Shown: positions 20,169-38,293 of the stretch, piece by piece
Numbering within the stretch: the stretch's first letter is position 1
Layout of the letters: every line of letters starts with the position of its first letter
Origin: Phytopythium helicoides
Lineage: Eukaryota > Oomycota > Peronosporomycetes > Pythiales > Pythiaceae
Reading direction: 5' to 3'
Assembly: GCA_024867545.1 (NCBI GenBank)
Contig: JANFNE010000050.1
Location: forward strand, 124,001-188,000
DNA length: 64,000 bases
Program-made: the position numbers and the translations under genes
The notes under the pieces: model-generated
What the model saw: the letters and a program-made list of their open reading frames with translations, nothing else
Told to the model about the DNA's origin: nothing
Databases searched by the model: none

Positions 20169-20280
20169 ATGGAGAGGACGCCGAGACGGCTCTAGGGATG
20201 GAAAGCGACGGGGAGTAGCGGCGTAGCTTTCGGTTGCATGTTGCCTTTTATATTTCATATCAACGTGTGCACACTTGGGT

Positions 20281-20360
20281 CCGCCAATTCCCGCTCGCTG
20301 CACTAGTTCCGGGTCGTATTTTCGCCCAATCCCGCTCGCCGCCTCCCTTTTCAGCCAATC
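20281..20360 (+). promoter_or_regulatory. Three CCAAT boxes upstream of the NVL-type ATPase
   Basis: CCAAT at 20284, 20326 and 20355, each followed by a TCCCGC-type string (CCAATTCCCGC, CCAATCCCGC, CCAATCCCGC), 55-130 bp before the ATG. CCAAT boxes bind NF-Y type factors in eukaryotes. The repeated spacing and context make chance less likely. Confidence 0.55.
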
Positions 20361-20413
20361 CCGCGTGTCCATCGCGCCGTTTCCCTTCGAGACCAGTCAC
20401 TTCCGGCGGCGCC

Positions 20414-22921
20414 ATGGAGGCCAAGGTGAGCTTCCACGTGCGGCAGTTCCTGCGCGAGTGCGAGCAGCGCGGCGTGCGGCCGAGCGAGGATTCGGTCACG
20501 AGCCACTTGCGCGAGGCGCACGCCGAGTATCAGCGCAAGCCGCAGGTTCGTCCTTTCTCTGTGGCGCGCGGCGGGGGCGGACGACTGACGGGCTGCAAAC
20601 GGCAGGGAGCGCTCAAGAAGGTGGTGGCCAAGGTGTTGAGGAAGGCGCAGAGGCGCGCGGGCGGGCAGCAGGCGGACGCAGGAAGCAAACGCGTGAGGTC
20701 CGAGTCGTCGGACGAGGACGAGCGCGCCGCGCAGGAGCTGGAAGCGCAGGCAGCCGCGGCGGGAGCTGGCAATACGCTCAACCAGTCCATCCGCCAGGGC
20801 TACGCCGCCAACGGCAGCGCCGCCAGCAATGCCGCAGACGCCAAGCCCGCAGACGCTGACGCCAAGCCCGCGGTCAAGAAGGTCAAGGTGAGGCAGCGAG
20901 CAGACAGCGGCAAGAGCGCAGCCAAGCGCCGAGACGCGGCTGAGGACGCGCCGGACGCAGACGGAGAGGGCAGCGGCTTCGTCGTCTCGCGACCCAACAC
21001 GCGCTACTCGGACTTTGGCGGTATTCAGACCATCCTGCAGGAGGTCAAGGAACTCATCGAGTACCCGCTCACGCACCCAGAGGTGTACCAGCACCTCGGC
21101 GTTGAGCCACCGCGCGGCATCCTGCTGCACGGACCGCCGGGAACGGGCAAGACGATGCTCGCCAACGCCATCGCGGGCGAGTCGGGTGCATGTTTCCTGC
21201 GCATATCGGCGCCCGAGATCGTGTCGGGCATGTCGGGCGAGTCGGAGCAGAAGCTGCGCGAGCTGTTCGAGGAGGCGATCGCAAAGGCGCCGTCTATCAT
21301 ATTTATCGACGAGATCGACGCCATCACGCCCAAACGAGAGACCTCCCAGCGCGGGATGGAGAAGCGCATTGTAGCGCAGCTGCTGACGTCTACCGACTCG
21401 CTGAGCCTCGAGAACACGGGTGGCAAGCCGGTTCTGATCATCGGTGCCACGAACCGCCCAGACGCGCTCGACTCGGCGCTGCGCCGCGCCGGACGCTTTG
21501 ACCGCGAGATATGCCTCGGCATCCCTGACGAGGACGCGCGCGAGCGCATCCTCCAGGTGCTCTCACAGAAGATGAAGTTAGACGGTGCATTCGACTTCCG
21601 TGCGCTTGCTCGCCGCACTCCTGGTTTTGTTGGAGCTGACCTCGTGTCGCTGACAAAGGAGGCCGCGGTGATTGCGGTCAACCGTATTTTCTCGTCGATG
21701 CTGAGTTCGTCGCCATCCACCCCTGTTGAGTCATCCAGTGGTGGTAACCAGAGTGATGCCACCGACGGTGATGTCGACATGACTGCCTCTGCTGACCAAA
21801 CTGTGGAGACAGACGCCGAGTCTGCTGCTGCAGCAGCTGCTGCGGCCGACTCGATTCGATCGCGCACAACGCCATTTACTCCAGAGCAACTTGCTCCGCT
21901 AAGTATCACGATGGACGACTTTGTGGCAGCTATTGCCAAGGTGCAGCCGAGCTCCAAGCGTGAAGGATTCGCAACCATCCCTGATGTCTCATGGGACGAT
22001 ATCGGCGCTCTCTCGAGTGTCCGGGACGAGTTGGTGCTATCGATCTTGCATCCAATCCAGCACCCCGAACGATTTGAAGCTCTTGGGCTCAAGATGCCAG
22101 CAGGCGTGCTTTTGTACGGTCCGCCTGGCTGTGGTAAGACTCTTCTGGCAAAGGCCATTGCAAACGAAAGTGGCGCAAACTTCATCAGTATCAAGGGCCC
22201 AGAACTGCTTGACAAATACGTCGGCGAGTCCGAGCGTGCTGTTCGCCAGGTGTTCCAGCGTGCACGCGCGTCATCTCCGTGCGTCGTCTTCTTTGATGAG
22301 TTGGATGCGCTGGCTCCTCGTCGTTCGGGTGGCGCAGGTGGTGATAGCGGCGGCAACGGTGTGAGCGAGCGCGTCGTGAACCAGCTTCTAACCGAAATGG
22401 ATGGGCTCGATGCTCGAAAGAATGTGTTTGTGATCGCTGCCACAAACCGCCCAGACATCATCGACCCGGCGATGCTCCGTCCTGGTCGATTGGACAAGCT
22501 GCTTTACGTCCCATTGCCAGAGCCGAGTGAGCGCCTGCAAATCCTGCTCACAGTGACCAAGAAGTGCCGCATGGATCCGTCCGTGAACCTGGAAGCCATC
22601 GCACTTGACTCACGCTGCAACGGTTTTAGCGGTGCTGATCTCAGTGCACTTGTGCGAGAAGCCGGCATTGCCGCACTGCGAGCCACAGACCTGTCGGATG
22701 TGACGCAGCCGCTGTCGATTTGCCAGCATCACTTCTACGCCGCGTTCGACTCGGTGTTTCCCTCGGTCTCGCGCGCAGACCAGCGCATGTTCGATAAGAT
22801 GAAGAAGAACCTACGAAAGACGCGATCGGCTCTTGCTAAGGACTCATCCACCAAGGCCACAGAGCACCCAAATGCAGGCGAAACTGGAAATGAGGACATA
22901 CCAGCAGTAGCTACCACCTAG
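20414..22921 (+). CDS. NVL: Nuclear VCP-like double AAA ATPase (NVL/Rix7 type)
   Basis: 835 residues unspliced, about 815 if the in-frame 60-nt segment 20546-20605 is an intron (CAG|GTTCGT ... GGCAG|GGAGCG); splicing is favoured. Start ATG 20414 sits in GGCGCCATGG. The N-terminal helix-rich domain (SFHVRQFLRECEQRGVRPSE) resembles that of NVL proteins, followed by a Lys/Ser/Asp-rich nuclear-type linker. The first AAA module has Walker A GPPGTGKT and Walker B IIFIDEID; the second has GPPGCGKT and VVFFDELD. Both carry arginine fingers in the usual segments (RPDALD...RAGRFD, RPDIIDPAMLRPGRLD). NVL/Rix7 remodels pre-60S ribosomal particles in the nucleolus and nucleoplasm. CDC48 itself is excluded by the N-terminal domain and linker. 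It ends 74 bp from the convergent channel gene. Confidence 0.88.
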   Translation: MEAKVSFHVRQFLRECEQRGVRPSEDSVTSHLREAHAEYQRKPQVRPFSVARGGGGRLTGCKRQGALKKVVAKVLRKAQRRAGGQQADAGSKRVRSESSDEDERAAQELEAQAAAAGAGNTLNQSIRQGYAANGSAASNAADAKPADADAKPAVKKVKVRQRADSGKSAAKRRDAAEDAPDADGEGSGFVVSRPNTRYSDFGGIQTILQEVKELIEYPLTHPEVYQHLGVEPPRGILLHGPPGTGKTMLANAIAGESGACFLRISAPEIVSGMSGESEQKLRELFEEAIAKAPSIIFIDEIDAITPKRETSQRGMEKRIVAQLLTSTDSLSLENTGGKPVLIIGATNRPDALDSALRRAGRFDREICLGIPDEDARERILQVLSQKMKLDGAFDFRALARRTPGFVGADLVSLTKEAAVIAVNRIFSSMLSSSPSTPVESSSGGNQSDATDGDVDMTASADQTVETDAESAAAAAAAADSIRSRTTPFTPEQLAPLSITMDDFVAAIAKVQPSSKREGFATIPDVSWDDIGALSSVRDELVLSILHPIQHPERFEALGLKMPAGVLLYGPPGCGKTLLAKAIANESGANFISIKGPELLDKYVGESERAVRQVFQRARASSPCVVFFDELDALAPRRSGGAGGDSGGNGVSERVVNQLLTEMDGLDARKNVFVIAATNRPDIIDPAMLRPGRLDKLLYVPLPEPSERLQILLTVTKKCRMDPSVNLEAIALDSRCNGFSGADLSALVREAGIAALRATDLSDVTQPLSICQHHFYAAFDSVFPSVSRADQRMFDKMKKNLRKTRSALAKDSSTKATEHPNAGETGNEDIPAVATT

Positions 22922-22995: not shown

Positions 22996-25900
22996 TCAAA
23001 TCGCAGCCCGAACGTCATCGTCGTTGTCATCGTCACTGTCTTCCTCGTTCCCACTGGGCTTGTCGTCCAACCCGGCATCGTGGTAACTTTCGCTCAGCAT
23101 ATCGTGAAGCTGGGGGCCCTTGGACGTGCGAGTCAGCAGCTCTAACCGACGTGCGCTCGAAGTCCTTGGCATCCGCGGTGATGATGGACCGCTTCTTGGA
23201 GTTGGTACCGAATAAGTAGTGACAGAGAACTTGCGCACACCATTATCATTGTCGAGAGGTGGTAAATCATCTGCCTTGGCACTATCTCGTCCATCTAAAG
23301 CCGATGACAAAGCGCGCTGCTCGTTCTTCACGCGAGCGCTCGCAATCGTCACGCCAACAGCCTTGCGAAGGTGCCTTCGAGCCCCGACTCGACCACTTGC
23401 CAAAATGTGCTTGGCCTCGAGTGAATCTAGTTGGCTCAAGCTAGAAAGTAGCGTCATAGTGGCGTGATACACGTAAGAGTGAGGAACCTCCTTCTCCACG
23501 ACTTCCGAGTCTATAGCAGCATCGATATTGCTGTCCACCTCAGTCTTGCGACTCGACCCAATAGCTGCCGCCACTGTCACCGAGATGGTTGATTCGAGCG
23601 AAAGTGGAGGAACAACAGGTGACACCCCAAGAACTGCAGACAGCCTCCGAGCCTCCACGTTGTTACTTTGAGCGACAACACTTCCGGATCGATCGACTCG
23701 AGTCTTGTCCATCCGAGTGCGCAAGAATCGTTGGAGCGCATTGGCCAATGGAGGTGGCTTGGCATCCGTCGTCCACTCCAGCTTGTTGCGTGCACGGTAG
23801 TCAGGAAAATCCATGAGAACACGCTCATATGGCTCGTGGTCAAGGCGGTACAGCTCAGCTACCGTCAGCGCAACGCATGTCTCCTGACGTGCAATGCCAT
23901 ACAAAAGTGCAAGTTCTCCAAAGAATTCGCCCTTCTCGCGTGTGCTCTCAGCGAGCTCTTGCTTGACAAGAACGCGACCGTTTGCAATAAAGTACATGCT
24001 ACGATCAACGTCGCCAATCATCACTATCTCTTCGCCTTCCGAGCATACGACGTACTGCAAAGCTACAAGCAAGGCTTGCAGGAAGTACACGTCCATGGAG
24101 TGGAAAATTCCAACCTGCCAAGCAAACCGTCGCAGCGTCGTGTACACGACGTCTCGATACAGCGAGCGGGAGAGCTGCTCGATTGCGCTGAACTCCCCTT
24201 CTCCCTGCCATCGGCGCCACATTCTTGCGTAGTACTGCTTAATCTGTTTTTTTAGCTTCTTTGGAATGTCGTTTTGAACAAGGTAGTGCTGCATCTCGAA
24301 CAGGTTCTGCTCGAATGTTGCTCGTTTGCGGGAATGCTCTTGTAGCAGACGCCCATGCGCACCCACCAGGGAGCCATAGATGTAGATACTCCATACGTTG
24401 ATCAACATCTCTGCAATCACCTCTGGCAAATTCATCGCGTAGATATCACCGTAGAATACTGTTGTAATAGACTGGAGTGCATAATCAAGCGAACGCAAAT
24501 ACTTTCGCAGAACCGATACATGATCCAAGTCGATACTGGAGCTGGAGCTGTGGCCACTGGATGAAGTCTCGCTTGTAGTCAGCATCCCTGATGTCGACAG
24601 CCATGAGTACCCGTACACGTTGTAAGAGCGCTCAGAGATTATGAACCAACAGCATGCGATAAAGTGACCCAGCACGATGTACGTGATGATTGAACGCGCG
24701 AACACGAGAGCATCCTCACTCACTGGCAACTTGATATCATATACTATGAACTGGAAGAGTTGGTCAGTCAAGTGATTAATTCGCATTGAAAACAGTGTGC
24801 GGTTTAGCCGCAGAAGCCATAGTAACTGCCACTCATTTGGGAATCTTTCGTGTCGCGCTGGGGCAAGCACGAGCGCGAGGATTTCTAGCGGCAGCAACGC
24901 AACAACATCGAACCAAAATGCTGGATATGCTGCTACAGCAAGATTTATCTTGACCATCATCGTATAAGGACTCCAAGGAATACGCTTTTTCTCTCGGTTC
25001 TTTTGGTGTTCTTGCATTTGACGCTGGATTCCGAGTGCATGGGACGCTTGAATCGACCGTCGCACCTTGTAGCCAATGTCAAGAAGGCAAATAATGTCCA
25101 GAAAGTATTCCCATGCGGCCCAAGCGTCCAACTGAACTGATGGAATCTTAACTAAACCGCTCGAAAAGCACACTTTGAATGGTGTGACGAGGAAGTGATA
25201 CAGAGAGATTGAAAGCATGATCAGATCCCAGATTTTCCCCAGTCGTGTCATCAGCTGCTGGAACTCGTGTGTGCGGTATTCACCTTCACTATCTAAGGCG
25301 CTAGAGCTCGCGAAAACATTTGTACTTGACGACCAACGTCTGATAGATGCAGCTGATAGCTTACTCAGAGCTCCACGAGGCGAAAAATGATTTCCTCTCT
25401 CTACGGACTTTTTGTTTAGCAGACCCCGTTGACTTGTCCAATTCACCAGAGCTCTTATTGAACTAGTTCGAGGACTCAAACCGCCTCGAGGACTTGGCAT
25501 CACGACAGACCCATCTTTTTTGCGGTTCCGGCGCCAAGTGTAGTATGTGCGATATAAACGAAAGAGCGCGGCGAATTTTGGTCTCTGAGCTCGCTGTAAG
25601 ATCTCAAAGTTCACTCCAGGTGCTTCGTGTAGGGCACCTTGAATTCCATGCGCAAGACTGCGCCTAATACTCATTTGTTGCTCTTCCTCGTGCTTGACAG
25701 AGCGAAAGTACGAAGTGTTGAATTCAGGCAGCGAGTATCGGCGGTGGATGTGCTCGATCTCATTGGCAATCCTTTTGTTTGCTGCAAGCCGCCTCACATT
25801 TGCATCCATCAGTCTCGAAAACCTCCTAGCTCGATCGCCCCCGCGAACGTCGAACATTCCTGTCATTGCACCATCGGCACGAGCAGTAGATTTGTGGCCA

Positions 25901-28900
25901 GCATCATTTCCTATATTTCCATGTGTCTCCATCGCAAGCAAGTTGGCCTGCATTTTTAGTGCATTCATAGCACCTTCGGGTCCAAGGTCGTTACCAGCAA
26001 ATGAACTCACTTTGACTATCTGAGTGATCCGAACCCCAGCTTTTCGTCGGGCAGCAACTGATCGTGTCCGTCGAATCGCAGAAGGCCGACGCATTGTCGA
26101 ATGAACATTAGATGACGCAGTTTCTTTGCTGTATGTAGAAGAAGGCACTGCTGTCAAGATATCGGAGCTAAGAGCCTTCATGACGTTATCAGCAACTTCA
26201 TGAACGGCTCCTAGATACTTGAACCGAGACCAACACTCATTTTCAAGGTTGCGAACTGCATTGTCGTCCATTGAATCGCGCAAATGGCGGTTGATAGGGT
26301 TGACCATCACGATGAACTGCTGGATGAATAATCTGTACGTTGCTGAAGAAGACGTTGATGAGTGAGCTGCATTCGAAGTATTAGCAGCGGCTCGTGAAGT
26401 AGTATATCTACCACTCATGTTAAAGGATGGTCGTCTTCCAGTCAACTCACTTCCGCTTCGCCGCTGGCTTTCACGGAAGCTTCGTGATAAACGTCGTCTA
26501 CTCTGGATAGTTCCAACGAGCATAGCCTCGTACTTTTTGGCCAGCATGTCGCTCTTCGCAAGTAAGTATCGCGCTTTTTTCTCAAGTAAGTGCGTTGCTG
26601 GCGATGCCGCCATGGTGAAAGACGAGCGTCTTTTCTCTGGGAAGCTTCGGGTGGGGTGCCATGAGCTTTTACCATCGCGTGCATCTCCAGGTTTTGAAAG
26701 TTCGTTTGGTGCTACCGATCGCGAGGTTACAGCTCCAAACAAATGCAAGTGATGGTGCTGCTTTGAGTTGTTTGTAGTGTTTGCAGTTGCGGCTGACCGA
26801 GTAGCGAGCAGATGTTTCGCCTTGTGTGCTATGCGCAATGCGCACTGTTGATAACCATGCAGTCTCTCCATGAGCCACTCAATAATGGAGTGCTGGGCGT
26901 ATTTCTGAACCTGGTTGTCTGATGCATCACCATTGAACATCCATAATTCCTGCCAGTCACTCTTGGAAACATAAAGTACATCGCACGATGTGGTAGCCTT
27001 GACTGTCGCTATGCGCCTCTGGTCTTGTAGGAAAAAAGACACTTCTCCGAATAAGCACCCTTCCAACAGCACTGCCACAGGCGTCGCAGACTGAGTCCAG
27101 AAGACAGCTGCAGTCCCGCGCTTTAAGATACACAGCCGACTCCCTAGCGTGTCTTCTGTTACAATGCTGTCTCCAGGCACAAATAGTTCATCTTGAAGGC
27201 GAAGTGCGAGGTTGTTGATTTGAGAATGCGTCAAGAGACGGCTGATCGGCATGGCTAGTAGTGATGCGCCATAAATTTCGTGCATGAGCTTGAGTTTGAG
27301 ATTGGCAGAAAGATCATGAATCGTTTCGTGGAGGTCACGTCCCTCCGTTTGCTTGAACTGAATATCCAAAAATGCTGTAACTCGCGTGTGCAGTGCATCA
27401 GGGAGCTGGTGTTCTTTGGCAAACCGCTCAAAGCCATCGATGCGGCGCTTATGCTCCTTGACTTCCTTGTCCACATCCATAATGAGAGTTGACAACTCAT
27501 CGAGGACATGCCCCATGATGAAAGTACAAGCTAGACAAGTTAACGTTGCCCATAATGTGCCAACCATGCGGCGAGGCACAATGTCATACGACCCCACTAG
27601 AGTCAGTGTAGTGAGTGCCCAGTAGAACGAGCGGATGTACAGCGAGGGTAGCGACTCGTGATAAGTATGGATGAGATGATCGCTCTCAATCCAGCAGTAG
27701 TCATCATCATGACACTCCCACTCGGAGATGAGAAAGAAAATACATCCAGCGTAGTGCGCAATGAGAACAAATATGATTGCGAGCTTCAGTGGGCTCAGAT
27801 ATGACGATACGTTACGCGACGCAAACCGTTGCTGAATCAAGACAATCCACTCATCGAGCAGCACCCACAGATCTGTGATTCGGAGTAACCGAGGTATTCT
27901 ACACAGACTCGAAACGAGAGGAAGTGAGTTACTAAATACAAGAAATGGTAGTGATGCCATTACATCTCGCTTGAAACGCCTGCTGTAGCGGTAGTGCAGC
28001 GCGATCTCTTTTCGCTGGCGTAGGTTCTCCCATGCAGCGCTCGGGTCTACAACATCGAAATAATACAATCGAAGATAGATGTCAAGCGCAAAGCAAATAT
28101 CGCAAAATATATCGGTGACCGCAATGCCTGCGTATGTTGTAGCCGAAAAGTGGAGATGCGAGTGGAAGCAGATACGAAATACGATGAAGAAGGCGTTGTA
28201 AATGTTCAAAGCAGCGAATAATGAGTTCCACGCGCTAGCGACTCGGGTACGGACTGCCTCGGGAGATTCGTGAACAGTTTGCGTTGAAGACTTTCCATCG
28301 CCGTTGGCAACCACAAGTTGGTCACGAGTGTAGAATAAGGATGGTGTGTGCATTACGTGTGTCTGAAGCTTCAGGCGCTCAAGGTTGACAAGTACGCGCT
28401 TCAGTCGAGCTTGGTCTTCGACCCAAATCTGCAGCGCTTCGTCGCGAATGTCCTTATAATCATCCTCAAATTTGCGCTGGACAACGTCGAACTGATCTCG
28501 AGTCATTACAGAAGCCTCAATCGCCGATGCAGCGACAAGAGTCACGGAATGCGCTCGTTTCGTGAGGAACTCGCTCACGCCGTAGCAGTCACCGTCATGG
28601 AGGGCACGCACCGGTACCTTTCTACCTTGGGCGTACAGATTGATTCGCCCGTACAACAGCACAATGAACTCCCTGCACACATCCCCTTCGATGCAGATGG
28701 TCTCGCCGTTTTGGTAAGTCCGGTGGCGAAACTTCCCCGTCACTTCTTCAAGAAATTCTAGACTTGCCGAGTCGAATAATGGAACTCGTTTAGTTGCGTC
28801 CGCATGAAGCAACGTCGAAATCTCGTAACATAGCTGCTCTGGTAAATGGGAGAGTAACTGCGACTCATACGCCTTTTTGCGTCGATGAAACTGATGCTGA

Positions 28901-31900
28901 TAGAACTGCCGTATCTCGCGCCGCAAGTCCTCCGAGATTGCTAAGTGCTCCATAATAGTGTTTAGCGCGTTGATTTTCTCAACATGATGATGTTGGCTGG
29001 CCGTCAGGGAAGTCAAAGTGCTCGACATTGCCCCAATAACCCCGAAGTTGACTAATGCTCCAACGAAAATCCAGAGCGCGGCGAAGTATGTCTCAGCTGT
29101 TGAGAATGCCAAAATATCGCCGTAGCCGACACCCGTAAGAGCAACTACAGCCCAGTAGACTGAGCGAAGGTACGCAAACGGACCGCGATAGTGGGTATTG
29201 GTCTCGTTGTACACCGGAAACTCGGATCGAACTTGCCCGTAGCAGTCGAAAATGACCCATGAACAGTTCTGGAATAAAGTAGCCATTTCTAGGCAATGAG
29301 CTCGAGAAAGAGCACTATTTGCGTCGTGGTGAAGGTCTGCATTTGGCTGAAAAATCCAAGCCATCTCAAACCAAATACACCCGACTGCATGCAGCATCAA
29401 CCCGACCCCAAGCATCAGTAGCAGAACAAAATGGAACTTGGAGCTCATGCCATGATACTCGACAAGATCCTTGAGAAGCGATGGTACTCTTCGCAGTCGC
29501 AAAAGTCTAGTAAGTCGAAACCACCACGAGTAGCTTCGAGCGAGACTGTCCACACTTTCTAAAATGAGTCCAACAGGAAGCCATGCAATCATATCAATCC
29601 AGAATCCCCCATCGTACTTGTACGCCGTAAATATCATCTCAGGATCGGTCACTGGAAGCATCACTATCGGATCAACATAAGCGAAAAATCGAGCTCGCAG
29701 GATAATATCTACTCCAAAGAGGAGCTCTATGAGTAAAGTGATGACATATCGCACACCCAATTGCTGATGAACCGTGAAAACATGCGCAGCATGACGACTT
29801 GAAATGAAAGCAGCAAAGTATGGTACCTCAAATGCGACATATAAAGTACCAAGAAGCCCCAAGAGGTTCCATCGCATGCGAACAACGGAACCCGGTAGGT
29901 ACCATGCGATGGCAGCTGGTCTGTTTTTTGTAGCTAATGCTGCACCAGAATCTGCCCCGCGACCAACATCATGAGATGATAGCATAAATCCACTACTACG
30001 AGCACTCTCGCCGCCGCCGCCGCCGCCACCACCACCACCACCACCACCACGTAGACCAAGAAGCTGTTTAGTTTTACGCAACTGTGTGGCGTACTTATCA
30101 AGTACTTCAGTCATACGAGCCCGTGCTTCGCCCTCATTTCCCCGGTAGAAATGTGCCAGTACTTCATCAAAATGTGTTTTCTCTAGCACATAAAGCTCGC
30201 AAAACGTTTTTGCGATCGCTTTTTCTTCATACGCCTCTGGTGCGAGTAGACAGCTATCAGCAAAAAAATCGCCAGTCTGACATTCTTTGCTGTTGGATCC
30301 ATCAAAAGCACACAATAGCACGGTGCCATTGATAACGAAGAACATCTTTGCGTTGATTTTGGGCTCAATAATGTGATCGTTCGGAGAATACACTCGTCTG
30401 CGCAGTGATAACGCTAACAAATTGATGAACTCGGTGCTCTCTTTCATGAGGAAGCAGACTTGTTTGACTCGACTGGCTTTTAGTGTTGCAACAATTTTTG
30501 ACTGTAAGTGCTTGGGCAGATGATGAAGTGCCTCCTCACTGTCGAGACTATGGTGTGTTTGCCATGTGTAGTTAAAAAAGGCGGCAACTTTTTGACGAAG
30601 CTCCCGTGGCAAGCTCTGGGACTTCATATACTCGCGCGCATTGTCAACATGTGCTAAGAACGTTGAATGTCGAGCGCTTCGATGCCGAAAGATAAACAGG
30701 AACAGTGCGAGGATTGATGAGCTAAACACTGCTCCGATTATCTGGACAACGATAACATACAGCGTCTCCACGCTCGACACTGGCGTCACGTCACTGTAGC
30801 CTAGGAGCACGAATGTACGAGACGCCCAATAGAGTGCGCGAGCATACTTTCTTGTTGTCCATGCCCCCACAAGATGATCTCGAATGACCCAGCTCGTTTC
30901 TTCGTTTGGATTGCATAGCTCAAATGCAACCCCACAGCGGAAGTGGGCCAGCATCATATATCCGCACGCAATCCAGTGCACTAAGCCAACACCAACGCCT
31001 ATATTCCGCACGAGTGTCGAGATACCGGTGTGAGAGAGTCGTCTTGCCCACCAGTGTTCTGAATAAATACGTAGAAATCGCTCGACGCAGTTGATAAGAC
31101 GATACACACGCACGATCTTGACGATGCGCGCAAGATGAAGTGCGTTGTAGTTTCTCGATGCCAACGGAACTATTTCAAATGGAATGATCGCGACAGCTTC
31201 AAGCCCCACAACAAGCATTCTCTTCGTGCGTTTGATTACTTGAGCCCAGTGTACTTCATGGTCGTGACCACGACGTGATCTTGACCCTGCACTATTTTCT
31301 ACAGTCGCCCCGGTATTCGCACCAATAGTTGCTAGTGTCCATTGTGGCTTTAGTGCTACAGAATGGCTGCCACCCATCATTTTGCTGCTTGCCCTTGTTT
31401 TGACCGTCTCTCTCCACATTTTCTTGCCCAGCTCAAAGTCAACTGATGCAGCAAGCTGTGAGAAAGAGTCACGATAGAGCCGGAGTAGTTCGTAAAATTC
31501 GTAGACACCAACGATGTCTGCCAGCACGTCTAAAGCTGAGAATACGGTGAGATCTTCTGTCCAATTGTGGTGGTGCGATGCAAATGGACTATACAGGAAC
31601 CCGATGCGGAATGGGACACTGAAAAACACGTACAAAGCTGCAAAAAAGCGAATTGCCACCGCGATTGTTTGTCGAGTTGACCAAGAGACCTGGCGCTCGT
31701 ACTGTTTCTTGAGTGGATAGAGTATCCAGCGTCGTAGACTCATATATGGCAGCCGTACCACCTTCATCCATCGCCGCTTCCGAGTTTTTGGAAAAAATTC
31801 TACGCGCTTAATTGGCACGAAAGCTGCTCCCGGCCCTCGAGATCGCGGTGATGCATTTTCAACTAGTTTTGCAGACGGCCCGGCTCCTGTTGACTCGGCA

Positions 31901-32196
31901 TCAGTCACGTACACTTTGTTGCTGTGAGTACGCCCAAATGTCATTGTCTGTGGAGTAGGTTCAAGCGGCAAAACTGCGGCTTTATGGCGCGACGCTCGAC
32001 GCAGCCACTTTTCCGCCGCCCTGCTAGCGTGAGCAGATCGCTCCCGGTCGGACCCCAGAGAGGGGTGAGCGCCTTCACTCGTGGGCTCCCTGGGGGCGGC
32101 AGCCACTTCGTTGCCTCGACGATTGCTCTCGCAGGTAGCAAAGAAACCCTGAGCGCCTGTTTGGCCGGGGGTTTCAGGCACAACTGCAGCTGGCAT
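22996..32196 (-). CDS. Four-repeat cyclic-nucleotide-gated-like cation channel, 3066 residues
   Basis: One uninterrupted 9.2-kb exon. Four units of six transmembrane helices plus pore loop plus C-linker/cyclic-nucleotide-binding-like fold follow one another at about residues 157-690, 775-1260, 1319-1760 and 2320-2810. Pore signatures are LLGYSDV (~465), GVGYGDI (~1025), LVGSYDI (~1535) and TVFYGDI (~2582). S4-like helices carry spaced Arg (RLTRLLRLRRVPSLL in II; RIVKIVRVYRL in I). CNBD IV keeps a full phosphate-binding cassette (FFGELALLYGIARQET) and CNBD III a good one (LFGEVSFFLQDQRRIAT). CNBDs I and II have lost the key Gly-Glu. A Gly13 run joins I to II, a 550-residue basic linker joins III to IV, and an acidic tail ends the protein. 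One chain could form a pseudo-tetramer in a membrane; ion and ligand are unknown. Confidence 0.9.
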   Translation of the reverse strand: MPAAVVPETPGQTGAQGFFATCESNRRGNEVAAAPREPTSEGAHPSLGSDRERSAHASRAAEKWLRRASRHKAAVLPLEPTPQTMTFGRTHSNKVYVTDAESTGAGPSAKLVENASPRSRGPGAAFVPIKRVEFFPKTRKRRWMKVVRLPYMSLRRWILYPLKKQYERQVSWSTRQTIAVAIRFFAALYVFFSVPFRIGFLYSPFASHHHNWTEDLTVFSALDVLADIVGVYEFYELLRLYRDSFSQLAASVDFELGKKMWRETVKTRASSKMMGGSHSVALKPQWTLATIGANTGATVENSAGSRSRRGHDHEVHWAQVIKRTKRMLVVGLEAVAIIPFEIVPLASRNYNALHLARIVKIVRVYRLINCVERFLRIYSEHWWARRLSHTGISTLVRNIGVGVGLVHWIACGYMMLAHFRCGVAFELCNPNEETSWVIRDHLVGAWTTRKYARALYWASRTFVLLGYSDVTPVSSVETLYVIVVQIIGAVFSSSILALFLFIFRHRSARHSTFLAHVDNAREYMKSQSLPRELRQKVAAFFNYTWQTHHSLDSEEALHHLPKHLQSKIVATLKASRVKQVCFLMKESTEFINLLALSLRRRVYSPNDHIIEPKINAKMFFVINGTVLLCAFDGSNSKECQTGDFFADSCLLAPEAYEEKAIAKTFCELYVLEKTHFDEVLAHFYRGNEGEARARMTEVLDKYATQLRKTKQLLGLRGGGGGGGGGGGGGESARSSGFMLSSHDVGRGADSGAALATKNRPAAIAWYLPGSVVRMRWNLLGLLGTLYVAFEVPYFAAFISSRHAAHVFTVHQQLGVRYVITLLIELLFGVDIILRARFFAYVDPIVMLPVTDPEMIFTAYKYDGGFWIDMIAWLPVGLILESVDSLARSYSWWFRLTRLLRLRRVPSLLKDLVEYHGMSSKFHFVLLLMLGVGLMLHAVGCIWFEMAWIFQPNADLHHDANSALSRAHCLEMATLFQNCSWVIFDCYGQVRSEFPVYNETNTHYRGPFAYLRSVYWAVVALTGVGYGDILAFSTAETYFAALWIFVGALVNFGVIGAMSSTLTSLTASQHHHVEKINALNTIMEHLAISEDLRREIRQFYQHQFHRRKKAYESQLLSHLPEQLCYEISTLLHADATKRVPLFDSASLEFLEEVTGKFRHRTYQNGETICIEGDVCREFIVLLYGRINLYAQGRKVPVRALHDGDCYGVSEFLTKRAHSVTLVAASAIEASVMTRDQFDVVQRKFEDDYKDIRDEALQIWVEDQARLKRVLVNLERLKLQTHVMHTPSLFYTRDQLVVANGDGKSSTQTVHESPEAVRTRVASAWNSLFAALNIYNAFFIVFRICFHSHLHFSATTYAGIAVTDIFCDICFALDIYLRLYYFDVVDPSAAWENLRQRKEIALHYRYSRRFKRDVMASLPFLVFSNSLPLVSSLCRIPRLLRITDLWVLLDEWIVLIQQRFASRNVSSYLSPLKLAIIFVLIAHYAGCIFFLISEWECHDDDYCWIESDHLIHTYHESLPSLYIRSFYWALTTLTLVGSYDIVPRRMVGTLWATLTCLACTFIMGHVLDELSTLIMDVDKEVKEHKRRIDGFERFAKEHQLPDALHTRVTAFLDIQFKQTEGRDLHETIHDLSANLKLKLMHEIYGASLLAMPISRLLTHSQINNLALRLQDELFVPGDSIVTEDTLGSRLCILKRGTAAVFWTQSATPVAVLLEGCLFGEVSFFLQDQRRIATVKATTSCDVLYVSKSDWQELWMFNGDASDNQVQKYAQHSIIEWLMERLHGYQQCALRIAHKAKHLLATRSAATANTTNNSKQHHHLHLFGAVTSRSVAPNELSKPGDARDGKSSWHPTRSFPEKRRSSFTMAASPATHLLEKKARYLLAKSDMLAKKYEAMLVGTIQSRRRLSRSFRESQRRSGSELTGRRPSFNMSGRYTTSRAAANTSNAAHSSTSSSATYRLFIQQFIVMVNPINRHLRDSMDDNAVRNLENECWSRFKYLGAVHEVADNVMKALSSDILTAVPSSTYSKETASSNVHSTMRRPSAIRRTRSVAARRKAGVRITQIVKVSSFAGNDLGPEGAMNALKMQANLLAMETHGNIGNDAGHKSTARADGAMTGMFDVRGGDRARRFSRLMDANVRRLAANKRIANEIEHIHRRYSLPEFNTSYFRSVKHEEEQQMSIRRSLAHGIQGALHEAPGVNFEILQRAQRPKFAALFRLYRTYYTWRRNRKKDGSVVMPSPRGGLSPRTSSIRALVNWTSQRGLLNKKSVERGNHFSPRGALSKLSAASIRRWSSSTNVFASSSALDSEGEYRTHEFQQLMTRLGKIWDLIMLSISLYHFLVTPFKVCFSSGLVKIPSVQLDAWAAWEYFLDIICLLDIGYKVRRSIQASHALGIQRQMQEHQKNREKKRIPWSPYTMMVKINLAVAAYPAFWFDVVALLPLEILALVLAPARHERFPNEWQLLWLLRLNRTLFSMRINHLTDQLFQFIVYDIKLPVSEDALVFARSIITYIVLGHFIACCWFIISERSYNVYGYSWLSTSGMLTTSETSSSGHSSSSSIDLDHVSVLRKYLRSLDYALQSITTVFYGDIYAMNLPEVIAEMLINVWSIYIYGSLVGAHGRLLQEHSRKRATFEQNLFEMQHYLVQNDIPKKLKKQIKQYYARMWRRWQGEGEFSAIEQLSRSLYRDVVYTTLRRFAWQVGIFHSMDVYFLQALLVALQYVVCSEGEEIVMIGDVDRSMYFIANGRVLVKQELAESTREKGEFFGELALLYGIARQETCVALTVAELYRLDHEPYERVLMDFPDYRARNKLEWTTDAKPPPLANALQRFLRTRMDKTRVDRSGSVVAQSNNVEARRLSAVLGVSPVVPPLSLESTISVTVAAAIGSSRKTEVDSNIDAAIDSEVVEKEVPHSYVYHATMTLLSSLSQLDSLEAKHILASGRVGARRHLRKAVGVTIASARVKNEQRALSSALDGRDSAKADDLPPLDNDNGVRKFSVTTYSVPTPRSGPSSPRMPRTSSARRLELLTRTSKGPQLHDMLSESYHDAGLDDKPSGNEEDSDDDNDDDVRAAI
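30011..30049 (-). repeat. GGN trinucleotide run encoding 13 Gly in the channel
   Basis: Eight GGT-type and five GGC-type codons in a row (CCA and CCG on the plus strand) between repeats I and II of the channel. It is a flexible linker and a likely length polymorphism. Confidence 0.95.
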
Positions 32197-32534: not shown

Positions 32535-34433
32535 CTAACCCTCGATCGGCGTGTACGGGTTGAAGAAGTCCTGGCCCAGCCAGTACGCCGTCTTGTTGGT
32601 GTACAGCGCGTCGCCGGCCTCGAAGTTGGCGGCATCGTTGATATCGCCCGTGCCAATGTACTTGGCCACCTTCGGGTACGGGTACAAGGGACGAGTGACC
32701 GTCGAGTCCGACGATCCCGACGATCCGCTTGCCTCATCGCTCTCAAGGCGACGGGCAGACGGGGCACCAGATCCACTCGTGCTCACCCACTGACCGAAAC
32801 CCGCTGCCGAGTCCGAGGTCGACGCCGTACTGGCGATGACCTCGTATGGAGCCACCCCAGCCTCCACCCACTGCATCATCGCCGTCACAAAGTCAACAGC
32901 TGACGGGCCTTCACCACCGTTGCAGTGGTAAACGCCAGGGAGGAGGTACAGACGCTCAAAGTCATCAACAATATCCTCGCCCATCGTCGCCTGCAAGGCC
33001 TCGTGGAACGCGATCGACGTGCGGGGAGAGATATGAGGGTCAGCCCATCCGTGCCACAGGATAAGCTTGCGGCCAGCTTCGTAGAACGCCGACAGGTCGG
33101 GGCTAACAGCATCGAAGAGTGGGTGACGGGGACGCAGAAGCTCGATGGTAGCATTGTCGAAGACGAAGTCGCTCAGCGTGAAGTTGTCACCAGGGTAGTC
33201 CTCGAAGATGAGGTACTTGATCGCAGCCAGCGATGCTGTCGTACTCAGTAGGTTCGCCGGACTTGAGCCCCCAACAAAAACACCGGACCAGCCGAGCTCC
33301 GAGCCGTACTGCTCCTCGCCAACTGTGAGGTGGTAGCCACTATCCGGATCAATTGGGCCAGTGTAAAACTTGGTGATGGCTTCCACCTCGGCAGTCGTCA
33401 GACACGTCGAGTTGTCCGTCACATCCGAGGCACACTCGATGCTCGAGACATCAAAGCTGCAAAGGCGAGGGTCGCTCAGTAAACCGTCCTCCAGTCCATC
33501 GAGAGCATCGCACGCACTCACGACGGCCTCGTGAATGATCGTAAGGCGATCAGCCGCCACGATCAGTTCGCCCTCGTCGTTGGTATTGCTAAGGGAGAGC
33601 CACGCGTGGTGGAAACTGTTCTGGAACGTGAACAGCATGGCAGGAGCACCAGCAATGATACCATCAAAGTCATCGGGGTACCGAAGCGCTTCCATGACGG
33701 CCTCGCGACCACCATCGGAGCAGCCGTTGAAGTACGCGTACTCCTGCTCCTGACCGTAGTAGGCGAGGATGAGCTTCTTGGCGACCTGAGCCGTCTGGTG
33801 TTGCGCGAGGTACGCAAACGCGATGCGCTTGTCTTCTTCGAGACCGAACACACCGTCGGTGTTACCATCCATGTCCGTGCCACCGAAGGCGAAGTTGCCA
33901 TTAGCGACTTCCTCATTCCCTTCAGCAGCACCAGGACTAAGACTGATGCTGCCACAGAGGCCGCTGCATCCGACTTGCATGTAACGTTGGGTCCAGGTAG
34001 ACACCGGCAGCATGATCTGCCAACCAACGGCGGGAGGGAGTTCGCCCGTCACCGAGCAGTAGCTGATACCGTCGCTCGTGGTGACCTCAGCGGCCGTGAT
34101 GTTGCTGCCGCTTCCACCGATGTCTGTGAGGTCGACGGTAAGAAGGTCGGCACAGTCTATGACGGGTTCGACGACTGCAAGAGTCGTGGCGGAACCGCCG
34201 TCCGTGGAGGTCGATCCGGCGACAGAGGCAGCGGTGCTGTCGGCGGTGCTGGCGGCAGTGCTGTCGGTAGTGCTGGCAGCGGCATCGGAAACATCTGCGT
34301 CGGCGCCAGTGGATGCCGACGTGCCGGAGCTGAACTGACTGTCACAGTCCACGGCACGACGGGCGTCCACGAGGCTGTTGGCGATGGCGAATGCCGCAAG
34401 CGCGGCCACGAGTGTCGGCTTGATTACGAGCAT
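32535..34433 (-). CDS. Secreted tannase/feruloyl esterase family protein, copy 1
   Basis: 632 residues, single exon, with an N-terminal signal peptide (MLVIKPTLVAALAAFAIANS) and then a Ser/Thr/Asp-rich linker of about 60 residues. The catalytic domain belongs to the tannase/feruloyl esterase family (alpha/beta hydrolase): nucleophile in GCSDGGRE (Ser239), acid in GWADPHIS (Asp465), His503 in GVYHC. The Cys next to Ser and the Cys after His fit the CS-D-HC pattern of this family. It would hydrolyse ester-linked phenolics such as gallates or hydroxycinnamates outside the cell; the true substrate is not predictable. Near-identical to copy 2 (differences include Ala-Asp/Ala-Asn in the linker and Thr/Ser in LLTVDL). 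Divergent from copy 2 across the palindrome centre. Confidence 0.9.
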   Translation of the reverse strand: MLVIKPTLVAALAAFAIANSLVDARRAVDCDSQFSSGTSASTGADADVSDAAASTTDSTAASTADSTAASVAGSTSTDGGSATTLAVVEPVIDCADLLTVDLTDIGGSGSNITAAEVTTSDGISYCSVTGELPPAVGWQIMLPVSTWTQRYMQVGCSGLCGSISLSPGAAEGNEEVANGNFAFGGTDMDGNTDGVFGLEEDKRIAFAYLAQHQTAQVAKKLILAYYGQEQEYAYFNGCSDGGREAVMEALRYPDDFDGIIAGAPAMLFTFQNSFHHAWLSLSNTNDEGELIVAADRLTIIHEAVVSACDALDGLEDGLLSDPRLCSFDVSSIECASDVTDNSTCLTTAEVEAITKFYTGPIDPDSGYHLTVGEEQYGSELGWSGVFVGGSSPANLLSTTASLAAIKYLIFEDYPGDNFTLSDFVFDNATIELLRPRHPLFDAVSPDLSAFYEAGRKLILWHGWADPHISPRTSIAFHEALQATMGEDIVDDFERLYLLPGVYHCNGGEGPSAVDFVTAMMQWVEAGVAPYEVIASTASTSDSAAGFGQWVSTSGSGAPSARRLESDEASGSSGSSDSTVTRPLYPYPKVAKYIGTGDINDAANFEAGDALYTNKTAYWLGQDFFNPYTPIEG

Positions 34434-34499
34434 CGATCACCGAGAGAGCTTGAGAGCTGGAGATCTTGAGTGAGTGGTGTGCAGAGGTAGGAGAAAAGC

Positions 34500-34506
34500 G
34501 GAATGG
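34500..34506 (-). promoter_or_regulatory. Oomycete initiator-like motif CCATTCC for tannase copy 1
   Basis: CCATTCC followed by GCTTTTCTCC on the minus strand, 67 bp before the ATG. It fits the oomycete initiator YCAYTYY with a pyrimidine-rich flanking element. The surrounding ~36 nt (CAAGTCCTGCCACGTTACCA and following) are conserved in copies 1, 2 and 4. Confidence 0.6.
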
Positions 34507-34604
34507 TAACGTGGCAGGACTTGCGAGAACGTTGCAGTGATCGGGCGGACGCTGCGGAAAGGCCTTTGCGACGATTACGTGGTCGTAAAGTGGATTTCGT
34601 AGAC

Positions 34605-35871
34605 AGATCCCAGCCCGAGCAAGGACTACATTGCTGCAAAAGCATGGTGAACATGCAATCACGATCTCACGGCTATCCTAAATGTCCAACGCAGCGTGTC
34701 GTTGAGTGTGGTGTTGTTTGTCTTGCTCTGTTGTACGATGGCCTTCTCGTCGGCGGTGGTATGCAGTTACTGCCTCGAAAGGGTATCTATTCCATTATCA
34801 CTTGTCACGAGCTGAGAGTACATATGACGCCGAGCGAAACAAAGGACTTCTCCTTTGAGACAACGTAGATAGAGGTTTTAGGACTTACATTCGCAGCTCC
34901 ATCTATCAATTACCCGCAGGATCTAAGGTTTTTAGGGTACAAGGGAACGTTTGGAAACCAAGTCAAGACTTTCTGAGCCTGGGCATCCGTACATTTAGCT
35001 ACAAATTATATGCTGAGTACTTTGAGTGCTGACGCTCGTTCTCCTTTGATCGTGCTTTTCAGCACGCCCGACAGTGCCAGCTAGGAGATCCTTGGGCGAG
35101 CCCTTCAACTAGGACCGAAATACCCCTCCCCATCTTGGCGGAAGGGATCCATTCAGAGTCTGCGTGCACATGATAGAGTCGGTTTCTGCTGCAGAGCCTT
35201 TGTAGGATCCAGACTCACTCACTATCGTATTTGCGGGTGTCAACAGTTGGAGTATTTGATTATAGCCCTCGATCCGAAGCTATCCGTTCTCGTTGAGGAC
35301 AACTTCGGTGGCAGCGAGACATACCGTGTTAAAGCCGGTTTGCCGTCTGCAATGTCGTGCCACGAATATCTGGTACTAACTAACTCTGTCCAACCTGAGC
35401 GTTTTGCTTTTGTGGTCAGAGTTGCTGTCTGAATAAGCGTTCATGGAGCGAGGATAACCTTGTGTGCGTAGAATCTACAGCAGAGTTCGGCACTGGTGCG
35501 ACAGAATGACCGACACTGATAGACAAAGCGAACGAGACCGGTGTAGTCTACCTACACCGTGTAGACAAGTTCGTAAGATCAATCCCGGACAAGGTCTCCG
35601 TACAGCATTGCAGATGCAGAGCCGTACACCATTCAATGTCTCAATTTGACACAATCCGCTGAGATAGGGGTGGAACCTCACTGTACACTACGTTGGTGGT
35701 GTAATACAGCATCGTAGAAGTAACGAATTGATGGGATGGGCCTTCAAGGCCCATCCCATCAATTCGTTACTTTCTACAATGCTGCGTTAGACAGTTCGGA
35801 TGCAGCAAGATCAGGAACTCGACTGCTCATATGCTTATCATGCACCGGTAGGCAACTCCGACGCGGTGCCT
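34605..35871. other. Spacer of the tannase palindrome
   Basis: 1.27 kb of unique sequence between the arms with no convincing gene. It contains a foldback element (35707-35784). Short open frames of about 60-70 residues look random. Confidence 0.5.
35707..35784. repeat. Hairpin/foldback element with 27-nt perfect arms
   Basis: Arms 35718-35744 and 35746-35772 are perfectly complementary around a single C (centre GGGCCTTCAAGGCCC). The pairing continues outward with one bulge to CAGCAT...ATGCTG. Total span is 78 bp, compatible with a miniature foldback element or a strong RNA hairpin. No target duplication is evident. Confidence 0.85.
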
Positions 35872-35969
35872 ATCTACAAAATCCACTTTACGACCACGTA
35901 ATCGTCGCAAAGGCCTTTCCGCAGCGTCCGCCCGATCACTGCAACGTTCTCGCAAGTCCTGCCACGTTA

Positions 35970-35976
35970 CCATTCC
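35970..35976 (+). promoter_or_regulatory. Oomycete initiator-like motif CCATTCC for tannase copy 2
   Basis: Mirror of the element at 34500-34506: CCATTCC then GCTTTTCTCC, 67 bp before the ATG at 36043. Confidence 0.6.
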
Positions 35977-36042
35977 GCTTTTCTCCTACCTCTGCACACC
36001 ACTCACTCAAGATCTCCAGCTCTCAAGCTCTCTCGGTGATCG

Positions 36043-37941
36043 ATGCTCGTAATCAAGCCGACACTCGTGGCCGCGCTTGCGGCATTCGCCATCGCCAACA
36101 GCCTCGTGGACGCCCGTCGTGCCGTGGACTGTGACAGTCAGTTCAGCTCCGGCACGTCGGCATCCACTGGCGCCAACGCAGATGTTTCCGATGCCGCTGC
36201 CAGCACTACCGACAGCACTGCCGCCAGCACCGCCGACAGCACCGCTGCCTCTGTCGCCGGATCGACCTCCACGGACGGCAGTTCCGCCACGACTCTTGCA
36301 GTCGTCGAACCCGTCATCGACTGTGCCGACCTTCTTTCCGTCGACCTCACAGACATCGGTGGAAGCGGCAGCAACATCACGGCCGCTGAGGTCACCACGA
36401 GCGACGGTATCAGCTACTGCTCGGTGACGGGCGAACTCCCTCCCGCCGTTGGTTGGCAGATCATGCTGCCGGTGTCTACCTGGACCCAACGTTACATGCA
36501 AGTCGGATGCAGCGGCCTCTGTGGCAGCATCAGTCTTAGTCCTGGTGCTGCTGAAGGGAATGAGGAAGTCGCTAATGGCAACTTCGCCTTCGGTGGCACG
36601 GACATGGATGGTAACACCGACGGTGTGTTCGGTCTCGAAGAAGACAAGCGCATCGCGTTTGCGTACCTCGCGCAACACCAGACGGCTCAGGTCGCCAAGA
36701 AGCTCATCCTCGCCTACTACGGTCAGGAGCAGGAGTACGCGTACTTCAACGGCTGCTCCGATGGTGGTCGCGAGGCCGTCATGGAAGCGCTTCGGTACCC
36801 CGATGACTTTGATGGTATCATTGCTGGTGCTCCTGCCATGCTGTTCACGTTCCAGAACAGTTTCCACCACGCGTGGCTCTCCCTTAGCAATACCAACGAC
36901 GAGGGCGAACTGATCGTGGCGGCTGATCGCCTTACGATCATTCACGAGGCCGTCGTGAGTGCGTGCGATGCTCTCGATGGACTGGAGGACGGTTTACTGA
37001 GCGACCCTCGCCTTTGCAGCTTTGATGTCTCGAGCATCGAGTGTGCCTCGGATGTGACGGACAACTCGACGTGTCTGACGACTGCCGAGGTGGAAGCCAT
37101 CACCAAGTTTTACACTGGCCCAATTGATCCGGATAGTGGCTACCACCTCACAGTTGGCGAGGAGCAGTACGGCTCGGAGCTCGGCTGGTCCGGTGTTTTT
37201 GTTGGGGGCTCAAGTCCGGCGAACCTACTGAGTACGACAGCATCGCTGGCTGCGATCAAGTACCTCATCTTCGAGGACTACCCTGGTGACAACTTCACGC
37301 TGAGCGACTTCGTCTTCGACAATGCTACCATCGAGCTTCTGCGTCCCCGTCACCCACTCTTCGATGCTGTTAGCCCCGACCTGTCGGCGTTCTACGAAGC
37401 TGGCCGCAAGCTTATCCTGTGGCACGGATGGGCTGACCCTCATATCTCTCCCCGCACGTCGATCGCGTTCCACGAGGCCTTGCAGGCGACGATGGGCGAG
37501 GATATTGTTGATGACTTTGAGCGTCTGTACCTCCTCCCTGGCGTTTACCACTGCAACGGTGGTGAAGGCCCGTCAGCTGTTGACTTTGTGACGGCGATGA
37601 TGCAGTGGGTGGAGGCTGGGGTGGCTCCATACGAGGTCATCGCCAGTACGGCGTCGACCTCGGACTCGGCAGCGGGTTTCGGTCAGTGGGTGAGCACGAG
37701 TGGATCTGGTGCCCCGTCTGCCCGTCGCCTTGAGAGCGATGAGGCAAGCGGATCGTCGGGATCGTCGGACTCGACGGTCACTCGTCCCTTGTACCCGTAC
37801 CCGAAGGTGGCCAAGTACATTGGCACGGGCGATATCAACGATGCCGCCAACTTCGAGGCCGGCGACGCGCTGTACACCAACAAGACGGCGTACTGGCTGG
37901 GCCAGGACTTCTTCAACCCGTACACGCCGATCGAGGGTTAG
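36043..37941 (+). CDS. Secreted tannase/feruloyl esterase family protein, copy 2
   Basis: 632 residues, the mirror copy of copy 1, with the same signal peptide, linker and triad (Ser239, Asp465, His503). Only a handful of residues differ (GANAD, GSSATT, LLSVDL). Both copies keep full frames, so both are probably active. Either the inversion-duplication is very recent or the arms exchange sequence by conversion. The C-terminal portion is Ser/Gly-rich before the conserved end FFNPYTPIEG. Confidence 0.9.
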   Translation: MLVIKPTLVAALAAFAIANSLVDARRAVDCDSQFSSGTSASTGANADVSDAAASTTDSTAASTADSTAASVAGSTSTDGSSATTLAVVEPVIDCADLLSVDLTDIGGSGSNITAAEVTTSDGISYCSVTGELPPAVGWQIMLPVSTWTQRYMQVGCSGLCGSISLSPGAAEGNEEVANGNFAFGGTDMDGNTDGVFGLEEDKRIAFAYLAQHQTAQVAKKLILAYYGQEQEYAYFNGCSDGGREAVMEALRYPDDFDGIIAGAPAMLFTFQNSFHHAWLSLSNTNDEGELIVAADRLTIIHEAVVSACDALDGLEDGLLSDPRLCSFDVSSIECASDVTDNSTCLTTAEVEAITKFYTGPIDPDSGYHLTVGEEQYGSELGWSGVFVGGSSPANLLSTTASLAAIKYLIFEDYPGDNFTLSDFVFDNATIELLRPRHPLFDAVSPDLSAFYEAGRKLILWHGWADPHISPRTSIAFHEALQATMGEDIVDDFERLYLLPGVYHCNGGEGPSAVDFVTAMMQWVEAGVAPYEVIASTASTSDSAAGFGQWVSTSGSGAPSARRLESDEASGSSGSSDSTVTRPLYPYPKVAKYIGTGDINDAANFEAGDALYTNKTAYWLGQDFFNPYTPIEG

Positions 37942-37998
37942 AGTGTGTGAGTGGTGCGAGATGCATTTTGCCTCGTTTAATGTTGTTTCGTCAATGCA

Positions 37999-38293
37999 AA
38001 TACATCGTTCTGGTCACGAATCCTGGTAAGACATACGTGTCATTCCAGGTACTATTGGCGCAAGAGGTTTGTGTTTTGAGTGCTCCTCTCACTAGGTTGG
38101 GTTGGCGCTAGGCTCTTGCTTCTCAGGGTATGATCAAACTGAGCTTTAATCAAGTGCGCTTGGAGACTACAGCAGAAGTTTGATAGCGGTGTGTTCGCTC
38201 CAAGCTCTTGCTTGGGTGGTTCAACGGAAAGATCTCCGGATCATAATATGACCAAAACGATCCATTTGCACTGACGAAGCGATAGCATTATTT
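37999..38293. other. Convergent spacer between tannase copies 2 and 3
   Basis: About 300 bp; I see nothing in it beyond presumed 3' flanks. Confidence 0.4.

What the first reader, a model, noticed from the sequence alone, without database searches (positions are those of the whole stretch)
22996..32196. Single-chain four-repeat channel built from CNG/EAG-like units
One 9.2-kb exon carries four 6-TM-plus-pore units, each followed by a cyclic-nucleotide-binding-like domain. Known CNG, HCN, EAG and KAT channels assemble from four single-unit chains. Four units in one chain is the plan of Nav/Cav channels, which lack CNBDs. Here the plan appears to have been reached from the CNG side. I see the repeats directly; pseudo-tetramer assembly is inference. 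I do not know whether such proteins have been characterised.
Basis: partly seen in the sequence, partly recalled or inferred. Interest (0 to 1): 0.9.

Follow-up and report, generated by a model that had tools for sequence, protein, structure and literature searches.

The report
Four-unit cyclic-nucleotide channel in one chain
A water mould gene encodes, in one long protein, four complete ion-channel units that other organisms usually make as four separate chains; the same plan is known from animal sperm channels, but here it seems to have arisen separately and carries an unusual lopsided pore.

Summary
In detail: window:22996-32196(-) is one 3066-residue open frame with four units, each 6TM + pore + C-linker + cyclic-nucleotide-binding domain (CNBD). 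The plan itself is not new: animal and choanoflagellate CNGK channels have it. What I found in no paper of nine literature searches: (1) oomycetes carry it, with eight four-unit loci of two families in this genome; (2) unit order is fixed within oomycetes, probably shared with unnamed protists, but not with amphioxus CNGK, whose units group together (99/99) and resist one-to-one pairing (AU p 0.011, 0.017, 0.005 for units 2-4; 0.0645 for unit 1), so the plan probably evolved more than once; (3) units are specialised: filters mostly GYDD/GYGD/GSRE/FYGD (canonical only in unit 2), and the ligand-site glutamate is kept almost only in units 3 and 4. The filter Asp of unit 1 and Arg of unit 3 were lost together three times, a weak hint that opposite units face each other in one pore. 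Best reading: a pseudo-tetrameric cation channel with an asymmetric filter, modulated through CNBDs 3 and 4. Selectivity, ligand and assembly are untested.

The parts
22996..32196 (-). uninterrupted open frame, 3066 aa, four-unit CNBD channel (family alpha)
   Evidence: 70 proteins matched
30079..31692 (-). unit 1 (residues 169-706): 6TM, pore, C-linker, CNBD
30790..30801 (-). unit 1 filter GYSD (GYDD in at least 39 of 51 homologues)
30154..30396 (-). unit 1 CNBD; ligand-site Glu absent (0 of 51)
28411..29892 (-). unit 2 (residues 769-1262): 6TM, pore, C-linker, CNBD
29116..29127 (-). unit 2 filter GYGD, canonical, 51 of 51
28486..28722 (-). unit 2 CNBD; ligand-site Glu in 2 of 51, not here
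26887..28251 (-). unit 3 (residues 1316-1770): 6TM, pore, C-linker, CNBD; not modelled
27583..27594 (-). unit 3 filter GSYD (GSRE in at least 37 of 51 homologues)
26944..27183 (-). unit 3 CNBD with phosphate-binding cassette FGE...RRIAT; Glu in 51 of 51
25252..26886 (-). long polar linker between units 3 and 4, with short conserved patches
23761..25251 (-). unit 4 (residues 2316-2812): 6TM, pore, C-linker, CNBD
24445..24456 (-). unit 4 filter FYGD (first Gly replaced; FYGD in 43 of 51)
23812..24042 (-). unit 4 CNBD with ligand-site Glu (50 of 51)

Best explanation
The gene encodes a cation channel whose whole pore is built from one chain: units 1-4 stand round the pore as a pseudo-tetramer. 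Because the order of units is fixed, each unit has specialised. Unit 2 keeps a potassium-type filter (GYGD); units 1, 3 and 4 contribute GYSD, GSYD and FYGD, giving an asymmetric filter that is unlikely to be a classical four-fold K+ filter. CNBDs 3 and 4 keep the ligand-site glutamate and probably bind a cyclic nucleotide and act on the gate through their C-linkers; CNBDs 1 and 2 are structural. Shown: one frame, four complete units, conserved order, conserved specialisation. Inferred: assembly as one pore, selectivity, ligand, gating. A role in the swimming zoospore, as CNGK has in sperm, is a guess from expression data on the whole channel class.
For: One intact 3066-aa frame with four CNBDs and four 6TM-pore units. 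Of 97 proteins (P0001-P0097, window included) 67 have exactly four unit hits of 300 residues or more; 27 have fewer, 3 have more. Units of the window, a Phytophthora, P. oligandrum and an Albugo protein group by number; unit profiles put the numbered order first of 24 for P0063 (itself in the profiles) and for P0080, P0083 and P0090 (not in them). A transcript-derived relative (P0085, EukProt Trinity ORF 'type:complete') carries four units in one ORF. Units 1, 2 and 4 model as 6TM + CNBD. In 51 main-family proteins the ligand-site Glu is present in 0, 2, 51 and 50 (units 1-4) and the unit 2 filter is GYGD in 51. Unit-1 Asp and unit-3 Arg were lost together in three lineages; random placement p 0.016 and 0.0037 with binary coding. 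P. infestans genes tied to cyclic nucleotides, CNG channels included, are nearly all expressed mainly in sporangia and zoospores (PMC5322657, passages).
Against: No electrophysiology, no RNA from this organism, no model of unit 3 or of the whole chain (limit 1200 residues). The Asp/Arg pair was noticed before it was tested; 8,562 of 378,753 between-unit column pairs score as high; the sign test on 4 independent pairs gives p 0.25; a sister paralogue group has Tyr in unit 1 with Arg/Lys in unit 3 (5 of 60), and 3 of 60 keep Asp without the base. Three of four filters depart from GYGD, so non-conduction is possible. A kept glutamate does not prove ligand binding: zebrafish CNGK has four canonical CNBDs and is gated by pH (PMC4749565), and the cassette Arg of unit 4 is missing in the Albugo protein P0063. 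The RNA-seq paper also cites a study in which cAMP and cGMP levels did not change during zoosporogenesis, and its data are for the class, not for this gene.
Confidence: 0.66

Rival explanations
1. [quoted passage not shown]
For: Same plan and CNBD in each unit; third CNBD intact here and the working one in sea urchin CNGK (paper's statement).
Against: Amphioxus CNGK units form one clade, 99/99; pairing units one-to-one is rejected for units 2, 3, 4 (p 0.011, 0.017, 0.005) though not for unit 1 (p 0.0645); the numbered order ranks 14 of 24 in profile comparison; G(Y/F)G in one of four filters of the window protein apart from GYSD. Only two CNGK proteins, both Branchiostoma, were on hand, and only one was in the trees.
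Confidence: 0.1
2. The chain does not conduct: a regulatory or scaffold protein that kept the channel fold, or a dominant partner of other channels.
For: Filters of units 1, 3 and 4 are non-canonical; in a second four-unit family of this genome the two genes whose filters I read (C38, C81) keep GYGD in none of four units.
Against: Unit 2 GYGD is invariant in 51 of 51 and the other three filters are themselves mostly conserved, which drift would not keep.
Confidence: 0.15
3. More than one chain is needed, or only some units line the pore (for example two chains, or unit 2 pairing with other subunits).
For: Two-unit tandem CNBD channel loci exist in the same genome (L016, L017, L027) and such channels are known in oomycetes (PMC7576140), so mixed assembly is conceivable.
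Against: Four units in a fixed order with unit-specific specialisation fit a self-sufficient pore; joint loss in units 1 and 3, itself weak.
Confidence: 0.13
4. Artefact: fused gene models or separate transcripts.
For: A possibly fused model exists in this family (P0003, 5352 aa, two four-unit sets).
Against: Uninterrupted frame in this assembly; homologue P0002 86% identical over all of residues 100-3000; transcript-derived relative with four units (P0085).
Confidence: 0.02

Closest known systems
CNGK channels (ApCNGK of sea urchin, DrCNGK of zebrafish, choanoflagellate SrCNGK; 'tetraKCNG' in an ascidian paper seen only as a search listing)
   Same: four 6TM-CNBD units in one chain; third CNBD intact here and reported as the active one in ApCNGK
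   Different: CNGK has GYG/GFG pores and is K+ selective (PMC4749565, passages); here only unit 2 is canonical. Units do not pair one-to-one with amphioxus CNGK (unit 1 undecided). Different host lineage.
[quoted passage not shown]
   Same: tandem CNBD units, oomycetes
   Different: two units, filters near TVGYG; the main text reports no four-unit oomycete channel
Nav/Cav four-domain channels
   Same: four 6TM units in one chain, asymmetric filter
   Different: no CNBD (recalled); different filter chemistry; none among the 60 best solved-structure matches shown per unit
Single-unit CNBD channels (SthK, CNG, HCN, KCNH, AKT1/SKOR/GORK)
   Same: fold of every unit examined
   Different: four chains per channel

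Membership tests
CNBD-channel superfamily | 6TM pore unit followed by C-linker and CNBD | tested here: met
   four times by sequence; units 1, 2, 4 also by model
CNBD-channel superfamily | TVGY/FG filter | tested here: inconclusive
   met in unit 2 only (51/51); units 1, 3, 4 depart. The superfamily tolerates departures: metazoan CNG has TIGE (PMC7576140)
CNGK | four 6TM-CNBD units in one chain | tested here: met
CNGK | G(Y/F)GD filter in each unit | tested here: not met
   the amphioxus protein P0088 has GYGD in 4 of 4
CNGK | units 1-4 orthologous to CNGK units 1-4 | tested here: not met
   AU p 0.011, 0.017, 0.005 for units 2-4, but 0.0645 for unit 1; CNGK units together 99/99. One CNGK protein in the trees
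CNGK | K+ selectivity and gating by cyclic nucleotide or pH | not testable with these tools
   needs electrophysiology
Nav/Cav (FVCC) | four 6TM units in one chain | tested here: met
Nav/Cav (FVCC) | no CNBD; EEEE/DEKA-type filter | tested here: not met
   four CNBDs; filters of GYGD type and variants
Two-repeat tandem CNBD channels | two units per chain | tested here: not met
   four units

The most novel reading that the evidence does not exclude
Four-unit CNBD channels arose at least three times (holozoan CNGK, green alga Bryopsis, and the oomycete/protist line), and in oomycetes the fixed order let a potassium-type filter turn into an asymmetric, charged ring, Asp in unit 1 against Arg in unit 3, with neutral units between. 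That would be a Nav-like asymmetric selectivity filter reached from the CNG side, a new selectivity class. In protist relatives the same chain has been doubled to eight units (P0078; P0082 as a partial relative).
Probability: 0.28. Interest if true: 0.85.

Novelty: new variant of a known kind. Interest (0 to 1): 0.6.

Why it matters
Why channels become pseudo-tetramers is usually discussed from Nav/Cav (my recollection of the field). Repeated origins among CNBD channels would give a natural experiment: what happens each time four equal subunits are tied together. Here two things happen in a conserved way: the ligand sites decay in half of the units and the filter becomes lopsided. Natural orthologues differ in the filter residues of units 1 and 3, so the idea can be tested by expression. 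No plant protein was among the four-unit matches (not a search of plants as such), and related tandem channels were already named as possible targets absent from the hosts (PMC7576140).

Tried and rejected
Artefact or separate genes: rejected (one frame, conserved). CNGK orthology: mostly rejected, see above. Oomycete-only internal duplication (8 oomycete rows in one clade): not rejected, p 0.10, and 16 oomycete plus protist rows as one clade p 0.34, so I do not claim the date of the duplication. Pairing with protist units: units 1 and 2 supported in the 68-row tree (99/93, 100/98); unit 3 not in the free tree, but the held tree was better by 4.4 log units (p 0.66); unit 4 weak (17/80). In the 38-row tree unit 2 pairs (96/86), unit 1 weakly (87/35), units 3 and 4 are unresolved and the protist unit 4 lies beside unit 2 (83/21). 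Single-protein scores rank the numbered order 1 of 24 for P0084, P0086, P0087, but 6 for P0085 and 8 for P0082. One search was asked seven tests; two were answered, the third broke off, four did not start; the CNGK ones were done on the 38-row set. My trees do not show the published pairing of CNGK units 1 with 3 and 2 with 4 (open; weakly joins 2 with 3). Fold searches: no Nav/Cav chain in the rows listed, which is not proof of absence. Organisms behind P0078, P0082, P0084-P0087, P0089, P0091, P0092 and P0094 could not be named. Saprolegniales did not appear, but those searches need shared 5-residue words.

Rows dropped before counts: single_P0126 and single_P0128 (a quarter of columns filled); 26 of 94 rows left out for the careful tree of 68; 38 rows used for most AU tests. 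The motif survey used 51 of the 97 proteins: main family, four clean units of over 380 residues; 40 carry an oomycete name, 10 come from unnamed sources, 1 is the window's. The 60-row test added 9 sets: two halves of P0003, P0022 (unit 3 found in two hits), P0024 and P0079 (unit 1 cut short), P0067, P0080, P0081, P0083.

Full report

Where else. One search returned 70 proteins; those whose name states an organism are oomycetes: Phytophthora, Nothophytophthora, Globisporangium, Pythium, Albugo. With unit 2 as query 93 proteins came back, among them two Branchiostoma proteins, the green alga Bryopsis, and proteins from unnamed or unresolved sources that I call protists by inference. I take the Branchiostoma proteins as CNGK from their plan, their GYGD filters (P0088, 4 of 4) and because the CNGK paper lists an amphioxus CNGK; no source name says so. 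Of the 97 proteins in hand 67 have exactly four unit hits of 300 residues or more; 1 has none, 1 one, 7 two, 18 three, 1 six and 2 eight. Several of the short ones are marked partial. Within the window's genome (49 Mb, unnamed; oomycete by its relatives) I looked at 20 stretches: with the window there are eight four-unit loci. Three belong to the window's family, alpha (window, L011, L014), and five to another, gamma (L009, L010, L012, L013, L015), each with the units in order. Only the window, L009 and L010 hold all four in one frame; the others lie in several frames, and introns or breaks were not worked out. Two-unit loci are L016, L017, L027. These counts are lower bounds.

Origin. In a 68-row tree the amphioxus CNGK units form one group (99/99), the Bryopsis units another (100/100), and in gamma units 1 and 3 are sisters (100/99), units 2 and 4 weakly so (83/63). 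In alpha the units of oomycetes pair with the same-numbered protist units for units 1 and 2 (99/93, 100/98), and weakly or not for 3 and 4. Profile against profile, the numbered order is the best of 24 for oomycete against protist (1682 against 1621 for the next), but 14th of 24 for oomycete against CNGK. Holding alpha and CNGK units together one by one gives AU p 0.0645, 0.0108, 0.0174 and 0.005 for units 1-4. So alpha and CNGK probably became four-unit separately. At least three origins (CNGK, Bryopsis, and alpha with or without beta and gamma) is my reading; it rests on grouping of very divergent units and, in the trees, on one CNGK and one Bryopsis protein.

How it may work. In 51 clean main-family proteins the filters are unit 1 GYDD in at least 39, unit 2 GYGD in 51, unit 3 GSRE in at least 37, unit 4 FYGD in 43 (the printed lists for units 1 and 3 are cut, hence 'at least'); one quartet accounts for 25 of 51. 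The window has GYSD, GYGD, GSYD, FYGD. The protist relatives P0084, P0085 and P0086 have GFGD, GYGD, IIGD or VIGD, and GYGD, so I infer that unit 3 departed first and units 1 and 4 later. The ligand-site Glu of the CNBD is present in 0, 2, 51 and 50 of 51; the cassette Arg was not counted, and P0063 lacks it in unit 4. In sea urchin CNGK only the third CNBD is active (PMC4749565, passage). The parallel is loose, since the two lines do not seem orthologous.

Do the units share a pore? In 60 sets the unit-1 position is acidic and the unit-3 position basic in 45, neither in 7, only the base in 5, only the acid in 3. The seven with neither fall in three separate places: the window's clade (3), three Phytophthora proteins, and one of P. 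megakarya. Units 1 and 3 would stand opposite each other. Random placement on the tree gives p 0.016 with busy branches weighted and 0.0037 with binary coding. Against it: I chose the pair after seeing it, 2.3% of between-unit pairs do as well, the sign test has too few pairs (p 0.25), and the sister paralogue has Tyr with Arg/Lys. I call it a hint.

Literature. Nine listing searches of an open-licence PMC library showed me no report of a four-unit CNBD channel in oomycetes. PMC7576140 was read in four of five parts, which hold its main text, and searched for terms: it describes CNGK as four-unit and oomycete tandem channels as two-unit; its supplements were not available. PMC4749565, PMC12223298, PMC5322657 and PMC4820453 were seen as passages only; the rest only as listings. 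Subscription papers are not covered, so priority is not shown.

Verdict. A real, conserved, well-defined channel gene; the plan is known, the lineage, its probable separate origin and the specialised filter are the news.

Noticed in passing
P0078 (4597 aa, source ena) and P0082 (3590 aa, source jgi), organisms unnamed: Eight-unit chain (P0078) and a shorter relative with six full units, 73% identical over 3600 columns in one alignment that includes the junction between the fourth and fifth unit; first half of P0078 groups with P0092/P0094 (family beta), second half with P0084-P0086, the protist relatives of the window's family.
   Followed up: partly
L009, L010, L012, L013, L015 (own genome C38, C81, C12, C12, C67): Second family of four-unit CNBD channels (gamma). 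In the two read for motifs (C38, C81) none of the four filters keeps GYGD.
   Followed up: partly
L011:4793-4800 (C47, about 100 kb from the window gene): Paralogue of the window gene lies in two adjacent frames, split inside unit 3; short intron, frameshift or assembly error not decided. Left as it is.
   Followed up: no
window 32535-43007: Four tannase/feruloyl esterase genes; 32535-34433(-) and 36043-37941(+) are an inverted pair of equal length with equal Pfam scores.
   Followed up: no
window 20234-22921: AAA ATPase gene with two AAA stretches, next to the channel gene on the other strand.
   Followed up: no
L018 (C78:92501-102500): Three tandem channel gene pieces with near-equal scores about 2635 bases apart.
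   Followed up: no
P0003 (Phytophthora citrophthora, 5352 aa): Annotated protein with two full four-unit sets; may be two neighbouring genes fused by annotation.
   Followed up: no
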